A stretch of DNA of 21,569 bases from a virus. The stretch is from positions 1 to 21,569 of IMG/VR virus record IMGVR_UViG_3300046777_002051; one strand, given 5' to 3'. Below, in pieces: positions 6,316 through 21,048 of this stretch. Each line of letters begins with the position of its first letter. The first letter of the stretch is position 1. The translations under genes were made by a program, and so were the position numbers. Below the pieces are notes generated by a model. That model saw nothing but the letters and a program-made list of their open reading frames with translations, had not been told where the DNA came from and made no database searches.

Positions 6316-6670
6316 AGTTGTGATTAATACTGAGTATGGTGGCTTTGGACTTTCAGATATTGCTGTAGAACGCTACGGTGAATTAAAAGGACTTGGTCTT
6401 CATAAAGTATATGTGAGGAATTCAACCTCAACCGACATGTTTCATTGGCAAACTGCTAATGGTGTTGTTTTTATTCCTGGGTTGATTACTGACCGGCAAG
6501 ATCCTGCTCTAATTCGGGTTGTGGAAGAGTTAGGTATTGATGCAGTAAACAGCCCTTATTCTAGCCTTGAAGTAGTCGAGATTGCTGAAGGTACTGCTTA
6601 CCGTATTGGCGAGTATGATGGTTTGGAGTGGATTGAAGAGAGGGATAAGATTGAATGGAAGATAGCATGA
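6308..6670 (+). CDS. Conserved phage protein of the VINTxYGGF family, copy 1, 120 aa
   Basis: The start follows GAGGAGGAAG. The N-terminus MTKVVINTEYGGFGLSDIAV and the segment RQDPALIRVVEELG, followed by SLEVVEIAEGTAYRIGEYDG and a WIEERDKIEWKIA end, form a layout I recall from many tailed-phage proteins of unknown function. A close paralogue lies at 6946-7281, identical over much of the C-terminus. The two presumably arose by tandem duplication together with the coiled-coil gene in front of each. The function is unknown. Confidence 0.75.
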   Translation: MTKVVINTEYGGFGLSDIAVERYGELKGLGLHKVYVRNSTSTDMFHWQTANGVVFIPGLITDRQDPALIRVVEELGIDAVNSPYSSLEVVEIAEGTAYRIGEYDGLEWIEERDKIEWKIA

Positions 6671-9275: not shown

Positions 9276-9508
9276 TGAATTTCAAGTTCCAAAGGATGGC
9301 CACTGGCGTCCTCATCATTCTTCTGATGACGAGCATTGTCAGCAATGTTCTTGAGGAGGATTGGAATCAGGTCCTTGCGTGGGGAAGTTGTTTGATGGCG
9401 TGGGGATATATTTTCTTCCTCGAGGGCAAGATAAAGCAGCTGCAGGATCTTCTTGATAAGATCCTTGCTGAGGTAATCATTGCTGAGAAGAAGGCTAACG
9501 ACGTCTGA
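9272..9508 (+). CDS. Two-TM protein with C-terminal helix, 78 aa
   Basis: Two adjacent ATGs (9272 and 9275) are possible; the second is better spaced from AAGG. The protein has two hydrophobic helices (about residues 10-27, TGVLIILLMTSIVSNV, and 34-50, LAWGSCLMAWGYIFFL), then a long amphipathic helix (KIKQLQDLLDKILAEVIIAE). The form is a membrane anchor with a cytoplasmic coiled coil. It converges with the holin gene, overlapping its 3' end by 14 bases; no terminator separates them. A lysis role is possible from context only. Confidence 0.6.
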   Translation: MMNFKFQRMATGVLIILLMTSIVSNVLEEDWNQVLAWGSCLMAWGYIFFLEGKIKQLQDLLDKILAEVIIAEKKANDV

Positions 9509-9875
9509 GGTCTTCCAGCTTCTCCTGACCTCGTGTCCAGGCAGCTACCCCAAGGATAGCACCAAACGCAATGTGGACGAGCCCACCATTTTCTAAGGTG
9601 AGGCTCGTCCATGGTTGATATGTATACTCAATCTGCAACGCTTTGTAGATGATAGGTTGGATTCCTGCAAGGAACGGAAAGCCAACGAAATCCATAAAAC
9701 AGATCAGCATATACAACCAGCCCATTGCTGGTCGCCAATATGTTTTGATCCAAGAAGGTTCTTTAGAATTGACGATAGGAGTGTAGACCAGGCCTTGTTG
9801 TGTTGGAGTCTGGTTGTCATAGTTCTCTTCTATCGTTGAGTCTGCGTCCTCATAGGCGCCAGCACGAATCGTCAT
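9495..9875 (-). CDS. Holin of the 3TM (gene-transfer-agent) type
   Basis: The only convincing minus-strand gene here, 126 aa. It has a polar N-terminal tail of about 45 residues, then a W-RPAMGWLYMLICFMDFVG helix, a segment QPWTSLTLENGGL, and a C-terminal helix HIAFGAILGVAAWTRGQEKL. The W-RP, DF, W-x-x-LTLxxGGLxHxxxGAILGVxAW-RGxEK pattern matches the Holin_3TM family (PF11351), known from gene transfer agents and phages of alphaproteobacteria. It would form membrane lesions that release endolysin; no endolysin is in the window. A late-type promoter at 9975-9982 (minus) suggests late expression. Confidence 0.7.
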   Translation of the reverse strand: MTIRAGAYEDADSTIEENYDNQTPTQQGLVYTPIVNSKEPSWIKTYWRPAMGWLYMLICFMDFVGFPFLAGIQPIIYKALQIEYTYQPWTSLTLENGGLVHIAFGAILGVAAWTRGQEKLEDLRRR

Positions 9876-9948: not shown

Positions 9949-9978
9949 TTGAAAATCCAACCAAAAAGCATATATATT
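9949..9978 (+). promoter_or_regulatory. Candidate sigma70-type promoter for hsp20
   Basis: TTGAAA (9949-9954) is followed 16-18 bases later by TATATATT (9971-9978). The predicted start near 9984 would place the GTAGCG hairpin at the very 5' end of the message and give a leader of about 57 bases. Confidence 0.45.
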
Positions 9979-9982
9979 TATG
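9975..9982 (-). promoter_or_regulatory. Candidate T4-type late promoter for the holin gene
   Basis: On the minus strand the sequence reads CATAAATA, one mismatch from the T4 late -10 consensus TATAAATA, about 100 bases upstream of the holin start. No -35 is needed for this promoter class. AT-rich sequence by chance is an alternative, since the same bases also serve as a possible -10 for hsp20 on the other strand. Confidence 0.4.
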
Positions 9983-10039
9983 TAGCGGCCTAAGAGGCGC
10001 TACAATCATTAACAAACCTTGCTTTAACAGGAGGTCTAC
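9982..10039 (+). promoter_or_regulatory. ROSE-like RNA thermometer in hsp20 leader
   Basis: Two hairpins make up the leader. The first is GTAGCG...CGCTAC (9982-9987/9998-10003), extended by CCT/AGG with one bulged G. The second pairs ACCTTGCT (10016-10023) with AGGAGGT (10029-10035) across the loop TTAAC, leaving one G bulged or in a G-G contact, so the whole ribosome site is masked. An anti-ribosome-site element U-U/C-GCU facing AGGA with an odd G is the signature of ROSE thermometers, which control small heat-shock genes in rhizobia and relatives. Function is inferred from sequence. Confidence 0.6.
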
Positions 10040-10555
10040 ATGACTACATTTCTTGGTGTGAACAACACTTCTCCATTTACTTCTCTTGATCGTTTTAGTG
10101 TCGGTTTCGACTCTATGTTTCGGAGAATTGAAGACTCGAGAGAAACTCTCTCGAAAGTGATGTCACAGAACTACCCACCTTATAATATCGTTAAACTTGA
10201 AGAAAACAAGTATGTAATTGAACTTGCAGTTGCCGGTATCTCTAAAGAGAATATTGATATCTCAACTCAAGACAACATACTGACTGTATCGGGAAAGACG
10301 ACCGTTGATGATCTGGTCAAGGAAGGTATTGAACTTACCTACTTGTATAAAGGGATCGCAGATCGCTCTTTCACTCGCAAGTTCACCCTTGCTGATACCG
10401 TAGAAGTCAAAAACGCAGAATTAGTAAACGGTATGTTGAGGATCCATCTGGAGAACATCATTCCAGATTCGAAGAGACCCAAGAAAGTAGAAATTGTAGA
10501 CTCTGTTGGTAAGGTGTCGGAAAAGACCCTACTCACAGAGGATAAAAATGGCTAA
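10040..10555 (+). CDS. hsp20: Small heat-shock protein, Hsp20 / alpha-crystallin family
   Basis: 171 aa. A variable N-terminus (about residues 1-45, with SLDRFSVGFDSMFRRIEDSR) precedes an IbpA-like alpha-crystallin domain: PPYNIVKLEENKYVIELAVA, GISKENIDISTQDNILTVSG, a loop with YLYKGIADRSFTRKFTLAD, and VKNAELVNGMLRIHLE. The G-x-L-x-I-x-L element is the usual dimer contact. A short polar tail follows. Such chaperones hold unfolding proteins as oligomers and are frequent in marine T4-like phages, where they are thought to help capsid or scaffold folding. AGGAGG lies 5 bases upstream of the ATG and appears masked by the leader. Confidence 0.93.
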   Translation: MTTFLGVNNTSPFTSLDRFSVGFDSMFRRIEDSRETLSKVMSQNYPPYNIVKLEENKYVIELAVAGISKENIDISTQDNILTVSGKTTVDDLVKEGIELTYLYKGIADRSFTRKFTLADTVEVKNAELVNGMLRIHLENIIPDSKRPKKVEIVDSVGKVSEKTLLTEDKNG

Positions 10556-10709
10556 CAAGATCACTACTGCACTTAATAGAATGAACCAGTACCTTACGAC
10601 AAAGAAGGAGCTCAGTGCTCTTACAGATCGTGAGCTAATCGATATCGGCATCTCACGCTGGGATATCAAGCAGGTTGCTCGCGAGCACGCTGCTAAGGTT
10701 TTCTACTAA
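10548..10709 (+). CDS. DUF1127 (YjiS-like) small protein, 53 aa
   Basis: The start overlaps the end of hsp20 by 8 bases and has GAGGAT upstream. The core LSALTDRELIDIGISRWDIK matches the DUF1127 consensus (L-x-x-L-x-D-x-x-L-x-D-I-G-I-x-R), preceded by a helical N-terminus (MANKITTALNRMNQYLTTKK). DUF1127 proteins are abundant in alpha- and gammaproteobacteria. At least one alphaproteobacterial member, CcaF1 of Rhodobacter, has been reported as an RNA-binding protein affecting RNA turnover. Coupling to hsp20 suggests joint heat or stress control. A phage role in host RNA metabolism is inference. Confidence 0.85.
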   Translation: MANKITTALNRMNQYLTTKKELSALTDRELIDIGISRWDIKQVAREHAAKVFY

Positions 10710-14904: not shown

Positions 14905-16299
14905 GTGATCGAAAAAACAATCCTATCACACCTGCTGTTTAATGAGGAGTATGCTCGAAGGGTCGTTCCTTTCCTTAAGGACGACTACTTCCAGACTCAA
15001 TCGGATAAGACAGTCTATCAGCTGATAGATGGCTATATCAAGCAGTACAACAGCCCTCCCACGAAGGAAGTTCTCCAGATTGAGCTTCGCAACCGTGAAG
15101 GTTTGTCAGAGACTGTGTTCAAGGAATCAAAGGAAGTCATTGACAACCTAACGACTGATAACACACAGATCGAGTGGCTGATCAACAGCACCGAGAAGTT
15201 CTGTCAGGAGAAGGCTGTCTATAACGCAATCATGGCGTCGATCAAGATTCTTGACGACAAGAACAATCCATCATCGACTGGGATGATTCCCACGTTGCTA
15301 TCTGATGCTCTTGGTGTCAGCTTTGATGTCTCAATTGGCCACGACTACTTTTCTGATGCTAACTCCCGGTTCGACTTCTACCATCAGGCAGAAGAGCACA
15401 TTCCGTTTGATCTCGACTTTTTCAACAAGATCACAAAGGGTGGCCTTGTCCGCAAGACGCTGAACATTGCCCTTGCTGGCACGGGTGTTGGTAAGTCTCT
15501 GTTTATGTGCCATTGTGCTGCGTTCAACCTCACGCAGGGGAAGAACGTCCTTTACATCACGATGGAAATGTCAGAAGAGAAGATCGCAGAACGTATTGAT
15601 GCGAATCTCCTCAATGTGACAATCGACGAGCTTGCTATCCTTCCCAAGGATGCATACGACAAGAAGATTGAGCGTGTGAAGAGCAAGACGACTGGAAAGC
15701 TGATCATTAAGGAATATCCGACTGCTTCTGCTGGATCTGCTCACTTCCGTCACCTGATCAATGAGTTGAAGATCAAGCGGAACTTTGTTCCTGATATCAT
15801 CTACATCGATTATCTCAACATCTGCTCAAGCTCTCGTCTCAAGGCTGGATCGAATGTCAACTCGTACACGTACGTCAAGGCAATCGCAGAAGAGCTTCGT
15901 GGCCTCGCTGTTGAGTTCAATGTCCCGATCGTTTCTGCAACACAGACGACTCGTTCTGGTTATGGGAACTCTGACGTCGAGCTGACGGACACTTCTGAGT
16001 CGTTTGGCCTTCCTGCTACGGCAGATCTGATGTTTGCGCTGATCTCGACGGAGGAGATGGAGGCTCTCAACCAGATCCTCGTCAAGCAGCTCAAGAACCG
16101 CTACAACGACCCAACAATCCACAGAAGGTTCGTTGTTGGCATTGACCGAGCGAAGATGAGGCTATACAATACTGAACAAGAGGCCCAAGACGACATCGTC
16201 GATGATCGTCCTGTTTTCAGCAAGTCGAGGACAGGCGAAGCGATCGACGAAGAAGGCAAGGGCAGCTACAAGCAAAAGTTCAAACAGCTACTGGTATAG
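14905..16299 (+). CDS. 41: DnaB-type replicative helicase, T4 gp41 type
   Basis: 464 aa, close to T4 gp41 length (475 aa), with a GTG start preceded by AAGGATG. The N-terminal domain begins MIEKTILSHLLFNEEYARRV and includes the usual helical collar. The RecA-like motor follows: Walker A AGTGVGKS (about residues 191-198), the DMEMSEE-like TMEMSEEKIAER, Walker B IIYIDYLNI (about 298-306) and sensor ATQTTR (about 346-351). The enzyme unwinds the fork as a hexamer and stimulates priming. The primase (gp61) is not in the window. The last residues overlap no other gene; the next start is four bases on. Confidence 0.95.
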   Translation: MIEKTILSHLLFNEEYARRVVPFLKDDYFQTQSDKTVYQLIDGYIKQYNSPPTKEVLQIELRNREGLSETVFKESKEVIDNLTTDNTQIEWLINSTEKFCQEKAVYNAIMASIKILDDKNNPSSTGMIPTLLSDALGVSFDVSIGHDYFSDANSRFDFYHQAEEHIPFDLDFFNKITKGGLVRKTLNIALAGTGVGKSLFMCHCAAFNLTQGKNVLYITMEMSEEKIAERIDANLLNVTIDELAILPKDAYDKKIERVKSKTTGKLIIKEYPTASAGSAHFRHLINELKIKRNFVPDIIYIDYLNICSSSRLKAGSNVNSYTYVKAIAEELRGLAVEFNVPIVSATQTTRSGYGNSDVELTDTSESFGLPATADLMFALISTEEMEALNQILVKQLKNRYNDPTIHRRFVVGIDRAKMRLYNTEQEAQDDIVDDRPVFSKSRTGEAIDEEGKGSYKQKFKQLLV

Positions 16300-20023: not shown

Positions 20024-20053
20024 ATGAAATGTTTTGATGAGGATACAACATGA
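20024..20053 (+). CDS. Nine-codon leader peptide overlapping pstS
   Basis: ATG at 20024 is seven bases after GGGGAGA and codes MKCFDEDTT; the TGA overlaps the pstS ATG as ATGA. The ribosome site is stronger than that of pstS itself (GAGGA at 20038). Translation of this leader would end exactly on the pstS start, so it may couple or regulate pstS translation. Confidence 0.45.
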   Translation: MKCFDEDTT

Positions 20054-21048
20054 AGTTAGCACTTGCTATAGGATTTACACTACTCTCTATCGTCTCTGCT
20101 GTTGCTCGAGATAATGTTACAGTTACTGGCTCGAGCACAGTTTTCCCTTTCACATCGCTCGCAGCTGAAAACTACGCAACATCGTACAATGCTGCATCGC
20201 CTGTTGTAGAGTCAATTGGCACTGGCGCTGGCGTCAAGTTGTTCTGTAGTGGTGTATCAGAAGAGACTGCAGACATCGTTGGAGCATCTCGTCCCCTTAA
20301 GAAGGATGAAGCTGAGACATGTGCAGCTAATAATGTAACACCAATTGAAGTCAAGATTGGTTATGATGGCATCGTGTTCGCAACAGCAACAAACGGTCCT
20401 GATCTTACAATTGAACCATCCGACATCTACAAGGCCCTTGCTGCCAATCTAGTGATCGATGGTAAGTTGGTTCCAAATCCATATACCAATCTAAGAGAAA
20501 TAAACCCAGCATTTCCTGATTGGAAGATTAGCTTCTTCATTCCAGGTGAAAAGCACGGCACTCGTGAAGTGTTTGAGAAAGAAGTGCTAGAAGCTGGTTG
20601 TAATAAAGAAGAATTAATGGCTGCTGGTGTCAGTAAAGATGATGTTAGCAAGCAGTGCGTCGCAGTTCGTAAGGATGGATATATATCCGATATTGATGGC
20701 GACTACTCAGAAACGCTTGCTAGAATTACTGCTGATCCACAGTCCATAGGTGTTTTTGGCTTTTCATTCTTTGTCGAAAACACCGACCTGATTAAGGTTG
20801 CCCCTGTTGAAGGGATCGTACCATCACTTGAGACAATTGCATCTGGTGAGTACCCAGTTTCACGCCCACTGTTCGTCTATGTGAAGAAGGAACACGTTGG
20901 CCAGATTGTTGGCCTCGAAGACTACCTGACAGAGCTGACGTCTGACGGAGCAATTGGACCTGATGGCTATCTGATTGATATTGGCCTGATCCCACTGCCC
21001 GACGATGAACGCGCTGCCGTTCAGCAGGTAATCACAAACCTCAAGTAA
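20050..21048 (+). CDS. pstS: Phosphate ABC-transporter substrate-binding protein PstS
   Basis: 332 aa, full length for the family. A signal peptide (MKLALAIGFTLLSIVSAVA, about residues 1-19) directs it to the periplasm. The phosphate loop VTGSSTVFPFTSLAAE lies at about 24-39. A second ligand element, GTGAGVKLFCSGVSEETADI (about 57-76), is followed by VGASRPLK. Other family-like parts are GYDGIVFATA, a GEKHGTREVFEKEVL region and IGVFGFSFF. It would bind phosphate and feed the host PstABC importer; phage pstS genes are known from cyanophages. Both leader features suggest phosphate-linked or late control. The gene is intact. Confidence 0.95.
   Translation: MKLALAIGFTLLSIVSAVARDNVTVTGSSTVFPFTSLAAENYATSYNAASPVVESIGTGAGVKLFCSGVSEETADIVGASRPLKKDEAETCAANNVTPIEVKIGYDGIVFATATNGPDLTIEPSDIYKALAANLVIDGKLVPNPYTNLREINPAFPDWKISFFIPGEKHGTREVFEKEVLEAGCNKEELMAAGVSKDDVSKQCVAVRKDGYISDIDGDYSETLARITADPQSIGVFGFSFFVENTDLIKVAPVEGIVPSLETIASGEYPVSRPLFVYVKKEHVGQIVGLEDYLTELTSDGAIGPDGYLIDIGLIPLPDDERAAVQQVITNLK

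What the first reader, a model, noticed from the sequence alone, without database searches (positions are those of the whole stretch)
9982..10042. ROSE-like RNA thermometer on a phage hsp20 gene
The ribosome site AGGAGG is fully paired with an upstream ACCTTGCT containing the TTGCT anti-site and an odd G, the hallmark of ROSE elements that control small heat-shock genes in rhizobia. A second hairpin stands at the predicted 5' end, matching the multi-hairpin plan. A phage-borne thermometer would time chaperone production by temperature.
Basis: partly seen in the sequence, partly recalled or inferred. Interest (0 to 1): 0.75.

Follow-up and report, generated by a model that had tools for sequence, protein, structure and literature searches.

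The report
ROSE-like RNA thermometer of phage hsp20
The chaperone gene of this virus carries, in front of its start, a small folded RNA of the type bacteria use as a temperature switch; nearly every related phage chaperone gene examined carries it too, so a switch known from bacteria turns out to be widespread in phages, although its response to heat is not yet measured.

Summary
Upstream of a phage hsp20 gene (10040-10555) lie a bulged-G hairpin (9981-10004) and a second hairpin (10016-10035). In the second, ACCUU-G-CU pairs with the whole Shine-Dalgarno (SD) sequence AGGAGG, leaving one G bulged. The same two-hairpin leader precedes about 83 of 89 non-redundant viral hsp20 genes found by protein homology, including 18/18 isolated phages examined. 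In some exceptions it has moved in front of a small gene that precedes hsp20. The U(U/C)GCU motif is in 82/88 hsp20 leaders against 7/110 other SD genes. The first hairpin shows massive compensatory change (169 two-sided changes against 49 shuffled). In 13/13 complete phage genomes the only strong match is at hsp20. Rfam's ROSE models miss it, but a covariance model trained mostly on phages finds the Pseudomonas ibpA leader type (a measured two-hairpin ROSE-like thermometer) and E. coli ibpB. The destabilising bulged G is kept and no perfect anti-SD occurs, which favours a meltable switch. Phage Hsp20 also keeps Arg93 and Tyr34 equivalents that IbpA needs to bind and repress its own leader. 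Most likely a ROSE-like translational switch; heat response is inferred. I found no earlier report in the held library.

The parts
9969..9976 (+). promoter-like box CATATATA (6/8 to the T4-type late promoter TATAAATA), ending 4 nt before hairpin I
   Evidence: Sequence. In 127 of 233 related leaders TATAAATA (at most 1 mismatch) lies upstream of hairpin I, in most cases ending 3-5 nt before its first pair. The window's own box is a weaker match; promoter activity is inferred.
9981..10004 (+). hairpin I, UGUAGCG-G-CC-UAAGA-GG-CGCUACA, with bulged G9988; thermostable 5' hairpin at the presumed mRNA 5' end
   Evidence: Compensatory changes in all 7 pairs that vary in alignment A8. Stem of at least 5 in 81% of leaders against 4% of dinucleotide-shuffled ones.
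10016..10023 (+). anti-Shine-Dalgarno ACCUUGCU with ROSE motif UUGCU (10019-10023) and bulged G10021
   Evidence: Sequence. U(U/C)GCU motif in 82/88 non-redundant viral hsp20 leaders against 7/110 other genes; perfect anti-SD in 0/88.
10029..10034 (+). Shine-Dalgarno AGGAGG, all six bases paired with the anti-site (hairpin II, 10016-10035)
   Evidence: Sequence. The outermost pair co-varies with the SD across phages (C-G 26, U-A 26; 0/1000 shuffles reach this).
10040..10555 (+). hsp20 gene (small heat-shock protein, 171 aa), the controlled gene
   Evidence: Pfam HSP20 E = 5.7e-17; PHROG 432 Hsp20 E = 2.3e-40. Carries the equivalents of IbpA Y34, R93, R97 and K98.
10548..10709 (+). small DUF1127 gene overlapping the end of hsp20 by 8 nt, possibly translated together with it
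   Evidence: ATG at 10548. The longer TTG-started reading frame matches Pfam DUF1127 E = 2.7e-10. Co-regulation is inference.

Best explanation
The leader is a phage-borne, two-hairpin ROSE-like translational switch. The hsp20 mRNA begins at or near hairpin I, which stays folded. Hairpin II closes the SD with the U(U/C)GCU anti-site, weakened by a bulged G and a U-G wobble, so translation is low. When warming (or another stress that opens the helix) melts hairpin II, the 30S subunit can bind and Hsp20 is made. Shown here: the anatomy, its conservation and covariation, its near-exclusive link to hsp20, and its likeness to the bacterial ROSE-like type whose melting has been measured. [quoted passage not shown]
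For: (1) 83-84 of 89 viral hsp20 genes below 80% identity, found by protein homology, have the SD/anti-SD plan; 18/18 isolated phages examined, one of them with UUGCG. (2) Alignment A8 of 63 leaders (59 viral, 4 bacterial): 96.3% of cells paired, 169 two-sided changes against 48.9 shuffled, covariation 0.529 against 0.155 and at most 0.106 when slid; RNAalifold predicts 13 of the same 14 pairs unaided. (3) 13/13 isolated phage genomes have one match below E = 0.05, directly upstream of hsp20, five of them not in the seed. (4) The model retrieves Pseudomonas ibpA-type leaders and E. coli ibpB; the Pseudomonas ibpA leaders were shown to melt in hairpin II only and to confer roughly 3- to 8-fold heat induction (PMC3669281). 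(5) The destabilising bulged G is kept and a perfect anti-SD never occurs (0/88). (6) Stability of hairpin II (window -2.6, phage median -1.5 kcal/mol at 37 C) is within or below that of the bacterial references (-1.2 to -4.1). (7) Apparent exceptions (L028, L459, L461 and pattern loci L268, L305, L122, L085) carry the element before a ~70-aa gene that precedes hsp20.
Against: No temperature experiment exists. Nearest-neighbour folding of the window leader with coding sequence gives SD accessibility of 0.12 to 0.06-0.08 between 10 and 45 C, i.e. no predicted opening, though the parameters are poor for such helices. Many hosts live in waters of small temperature swing. Rfam ROSE and ROSE_2 do not match. 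L019 is a true exception with hairpin I but no UUGCU.
Confidence: 0.75

Rival explanations
1. Autoregulation or aggregation sensing: phage Hsp20 binds its own leader and represses its translation, as E. coli IbpA does; when misfolded or abundant virion proteins titrate Hsp20, repression lifts. The hairpins are then protein-binding sites and temperature is secondary. This may act together with melting.
For: IbpA self-repression needs R93, an aromatic at Y34, and positive charge at R97 and K98 (PMC10474464). In 83 phage Hsp20s with the element the R93 position is R in 81 and K in 2, Y34 is aromatic in 83/83, R97 is R/K in 76/83, and the window has all four. Hairpin I has an invariant bulged G and conserved CC/GG, more than a plain mRNA cap needs.
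Against: K98 is cationic in only 13/83. These residues may be conserved for chaperone structure. No binding data exist for phage Hsp20. R93K is inactive in IbpA.
Confidence: 0.35
2. A static attenuator: the weak hairpin only sets a low translation rate and does not respond to temperature or protein.
For: Predicted accessibility is lower than for other AGGAG genes (0.33 against 0.45 at 20 C, p = 0.004) but changes little with temperature in the model.
Against: A static attenuator needs neither a conserved bulged G and U-G wobble nor a specific 5' hairpin, nor restriction to hsp20; the bacterial counterparts do respond to heat (PMC3669281).
Confidence: 0.12
3. Hairpin I is only a 5' mRNA stabiliser coupled to the late promoter and unrelated to the SD hairpin.
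For: It lies 3-5 nt after the late-promoter-like box in most leaders that have one, i.e. at the likely 5' end.
Against: The same bulged-G CC/GG hairpin occurs in bacterial ROSE leaders with other promoters (E. coli ibpA and ibpB, Pseudomonas, alphaproteobacterial L576, L578, L579).
Confidence: 0.2
4. Chance pairing of a strong SD with a pyrimidine stretch, or recent spread of one sequence.
For: A strong SD often finds a partner by chance: 7/110 other genes have the motif.
Against: 82/88 against 7/110; compensatory changes with all four Watson-Crick pair types in hairpin I; hsp20 proteins below 80% identity.
Confidence: 0.01

Closest known systems
Short ROSE-like thermometer of Pseudomonas ibpA (Krajewski et al. 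2013, PMC3669281)
   Same: Two hairpins only; stable hairpin I; U(U/C)GCU with bulged G against the SD in hairpin II; small heat-shock gene; found by the phage-trained model; hairpin I also has a bulged G before CC/GG in L565 and L566.
   Different: Bacterial gene transcribed by sigma-32 and GC-rich; melting and heat induction were measured there. The phage element is AT-rich, has a shorter and usually weaker hairpin II and often a T4-like late promoter; heat response is untested.
ROSE element of rhizobia, Rfam RF00435 (B. japonicum hspA type)
   Same: Same 3' anti-SD motif and gene class; RF00435-found loci L576, L578, L579 show a bulged-G CC/GG hairpin.
   Different: Three to four hairpins and about 94 model positions; RF00435 gives no relevant hit in phages even at E = 10.
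E. coli ibpA/ibpB ROSE-like leaders (Rfam RF01832 ROSE_2)
   Same: Bulged-G hairpin and UCGCU against AGGAG; the phage-trained model hits the ibpB leader.
   Different: Bacterial and with more sequence between the hairpins; RF01832 does not reach the phage elements.
Known phage thermometers: lambda cIII, SPbeta blyA fourU, sigma-70 fourU (PMC11182007)
   Same: Thermometers in phage genomes.
   Different: Not ROSE-type and not on chaperone genes.
Cyanobacterial hsp17 thermometer (PMC4477652)
   Same: Small heat-shock gene, RBS hairpin.
   Different: Single hairpin with a 1x3 internal loop, no UUGCU. Cyanophage hsp20 genes carry the proteobacterial ROSE plan instead.

Membership tests
ROSE-like RNA thermometers | 3'-proximal hairpin pairing U(U/C)GCU with the SD | tested here: met
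   Window 10016-10035; 82/88 homologous leaders.
ROSE-like RNA thermometers | Bulged G and non-canonical pairing in that helix | tested here: met
   G10021 bulged and U10020-G10031 wobble; in A8 the pair is U-G 40 or C-G 23 beside the bulge.
ROSE-like RNA thermometers | Two to four hairpins, the 5' ones stable | tested here: met
   Two hairpins; hairpin I supported by covariation; its stability rests on folding only.
ROSE-like RNA thermometers | Upstream of a small heat-shock gene | tested here: met
   Hsp20 by Pfam and PHROGs; sole strong match per isolated phage genome lies at hsp20.
ROSE-like RNA thermometers | Heat-dependent melting and translational induction | not testable with these tools
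   Needs probing or reporters; in silico melting is inconclusive.
Rfam RF00435 (ROSE) | Score at or above the gathering threshold | tested here: not met
   No match in the window or in phage genomes at E <= 10.
Rfam RF01832 (ROSE_2) | Score at or above the gathering threshold | tested here: not met
   None in the window; only sub-threshold chance matches away from hsp20 in 11 other genomes or records.
fourU thermometers | Four U paired with AGGA | tested here: not met
   The anti-site is ACCUUGCU, with no UUUU.
IbpA-type self-repressing sHsp | R93, aromatic Y34, cationic R97/K98 equivalents | tested here: met
   All four in the window's Hsp20; R93 position R 81/83 and Y34 position aromatic 83/83 among phages, but K98 cationic in only 13/83. 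Self-repression itself was not testable.

The most novel reading that the evidence does not exclude
A viral family of ROSE elements in which the phage chaperone represses its own late mRNA through the element, so that the leader senses protein-folding load during virion production as well as temperature: a thermometer co-opted as an aggregation sensor for phage assembly.
Probability: 0.25. Interest if true: 0.85.

Novelty: new variant of a known kind. Interest (0 to 1): 0.66.

Why it matters
Only two or three phage RNA thermometers are described (PMC11182007), none of the ROSE type. Here a ROSE-like element is attached to nearly every hsp20 examined in T4-like phages of cyanobacteria, Pelagibacter and Methylophilales, and one occurs in a jumbo Pseudomonas phage. 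If it melts, marine phages sense host temperature or folding stress, and it may be among the most abundant RNA thermometers. It gives a direct handle on why phages carry Hsp20, and a covariance model for annotation that Rfam lacks.

Tried and rejected
Rfam scans at gathering and lax thresholds: no ROSE hit. DNA-level search in phages: no match. Plain MAFFT alignments mis-set the arms because loop lengths vary, so equal-length seeds (A6) and covariance-model realignment were used. Chance pairing rejected. Terminator reading of hairpin I rejected: no U-run follows it in the window. Nearest-neighbour melting of the full leader is uninformative. L019 looked positive by regular expression but is a chance hit. 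Pseudomonas phage Y7 (L540) is an unverified record with a Pseudomonas-like leader and may be bacterial DNA; it was not counted among the 18 isolated phages. Searching further bacterial genomes with the model gave few hits under strict filters.

Full report
What was checked. The window is a 21.6-kb viral record with T4-like replication genes: family B polymerase, UvsX-like RecA and DnaB-type helicase, plus ten tRNAs. The gene at 10040-10555 is an Hsp20 (Pfam E = 5.7e-17; PHROG 432 E = 2.3e-40).

Is it more than chance? Viral hsp20 genes were gathered by protein homology, not by leader sequence, and isolated phages were added. Of 89 genes below 80% protein identity, 84 have [UC][UC]GC[UC] before the SD by regular expression; one of these (L019) is spurious. 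Against the background, 82 of 88 hsp20 leaders with AGGAG have the motif and 7 of 110 other AGGAG genes do (p = 2e-39); a perfect anti-SD occurs in none of the 88. A scrambled control gave 0 of 120. Several of the remaining real-motif hits are hsp20 starts cut off by the end of the stored stretch.

Structure. Hairpin I varies in sequence and keeps its pairs. In the 63-sequence alignment A8 (59 viral, 4 bacterial) 96.3% of cells pair, 169 cells have changes on both sides (shuffled 48.9), and the covariation score is 0.529 (shuffled 0.155, slid at most 0.106). A8 was fitted to the model, so this leans towards the structure; RNAalifold run on it predicts 13 of the same 14 pairs on its own. My own hairpin search finds stems of at least 5 in 81% of real leaders against 4% of dinucleotide-shuffled leaders. 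In hairpin II the SD is nearly fixed, so little covariation is possible, but the outermost pair switches between C-G and U-A with the SD (26 and 26 of 83; 0 of 1000 shuffles reach the observed pairing). L036 and L030 replace UUGCU by a pairing CCUGCCU that still holds a bulged G.

Specificity. A model of 13 leaders not including the window hits 9981-10034 at E = 1.6e-6. The broader model R2 gives E = 5e-10 there and nothing else below 0.2 in the window (the window was in its seed). In 13 of 13 isolated phage genomes the only match below E = 0.05 lies directly upstream of hsp20. These are phages of Synechococcus, Prochlorococcus, Pelagibacter and Methylophilales, and the jumbo Pseudomonas phage Callisto. 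Genes that seemed to be exceptions (L028, L459, L461) carry the element in front of a small 71-74-aa gene followed by hsp20, and so do L268, L305, L122 and L085, so the element has followed the operon. Only L019 looks like real loss of the anti-site.

What it works like. The known element of closest plan is the two-hairpin ROSE-like thermometer of Pseudomonas ibpA, where hairpin II melts on warming, hairpin I does not, and removing the bulged G together with the U-to-C change abolishes regulation (PMC3669281). R2 found leaders of that type among 299 Pseudomonadota genomes (L565, L566), as well as the E. coli ibpB leader and an alphaproteobacterial ROSE locus. The same bulged-G CC/GG hairpin is present in E. 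coli ibpA and in loci found with Rfam's ROSE model, so it appears to be a common ROSE signature. Four bacterial hsp20 leaders from marine genome assemblies also carry the plan. Rfam's ROSE and ROSE_2 models do not reach the phage elements. Hence 'ROSE-like' is supported, and 'Rfam ROSE member' is not.

Mechanism and its limits. The computed stability of the ROSE pairing in hairpin II is -2.6 kcal/mol at 37 C for the window and -1.5 median for phages, against -1.2 to -4.1 for the bacterial references. The SD of phage hsp20 genes is predicted to be less accessible than that of other AGGAG genes in the same loci (0.33 against 0.45 at 20 C, p = 0.004), but the model shows little change with temperature, and for the window none. 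Heat response is therefore an inference from precedent and from the conserved destabilising bulge. In 127 of 233 leaders a TATAAATA-like box lies upstream of hairpin I, mostly ending 3-5 nt before it, so many of these mRNAs probably start at the hairpin from a late promoter; the window's box is a weaker 6/8 match.

A complementary rival is autoregulation. E. coli IbpA represses its own translation through the leader, and R93, an aromatic at position 34 and positive charge at 97 and 98 are needed (PMC10474464). The window's Hsp20 has all four equivalents. Across 83 phage proteins the R93 position is Arg in 81 and position 34 is aromatic in all, while position 98 is often not charged. Sensing of folding load could be more useful than sensing temperature in the open ocean; this is untested.

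Prior knowledge. The library searched (open-access papers only) holds no report of a thermometer on phage hsp20. Phage thermometers named there are lambda cIII and fourU elements. Papers on cyanophage Hsp20 proteins exist, and the one read does not mention a thermometer.

Noticed in passing
L028:2684-2739; L459:645-691; L268, L305, L122, L085: The same element stands before a 67-75-aa gene of unknown family (phasin-like by eye, no Pfam match) that precedes hsp20, suggesting a two-gene heat-shock operon in some phages.
   Followed up: partly
G003 (194.5-kb viral contig of L250): 6541-6591 and 16191-16241: Two copies of the element in one phage: one before an Hsp20-like gene (L560), one before a 63-aa gene without hsp20 next to it (L250). 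L211 shows a similar lone small gene. A small thermometer regulon?
   Followed up: partly
L565, L566, L576, L578, L579, L581: Bacterial ROSE leaders (Pseudomonas ibpA type, E. coli ibpA/ibpB, alphaproteobacteria) share the bulged-G CC/GG 5' hairpin seen in phages; possibly a general, unremarked ROSE signature.
   Followed up: partly
L526-L529: hsp20 leaders of marine bacterial assemblies (three alphaproteobacterial) carry the plan; L527 and L528 have a further bulged-G hairpin upstream.
   Followed up: partly
window 10548-10709: A DUF1127 gene overlaps the end of hsp20 by 8 nt and may be translationally coupled to it.
   Followed up: no
window 9970-9981 (minus strand) and 9495-9875 (-): CATAAATATATAT read on the minus strand resembles a T4-like late promoter pointing at a holin-like gene (PHROG 3427), so the region between the two genes may hold divergent promoters.
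   Followed up: no
window 20050-21048: PstS-like phosphate-binding protein gene in the phage (Pfam PBP_like_2, E = 2.9e-45), as in cyanophages.
   Followed up: no
L530:1-74 (-): Record of Synechococcus phage S-CREM1 annotates a glnA RNA (riboswitch) about 600 nt from its hsp20 gene.
   Followed up: no
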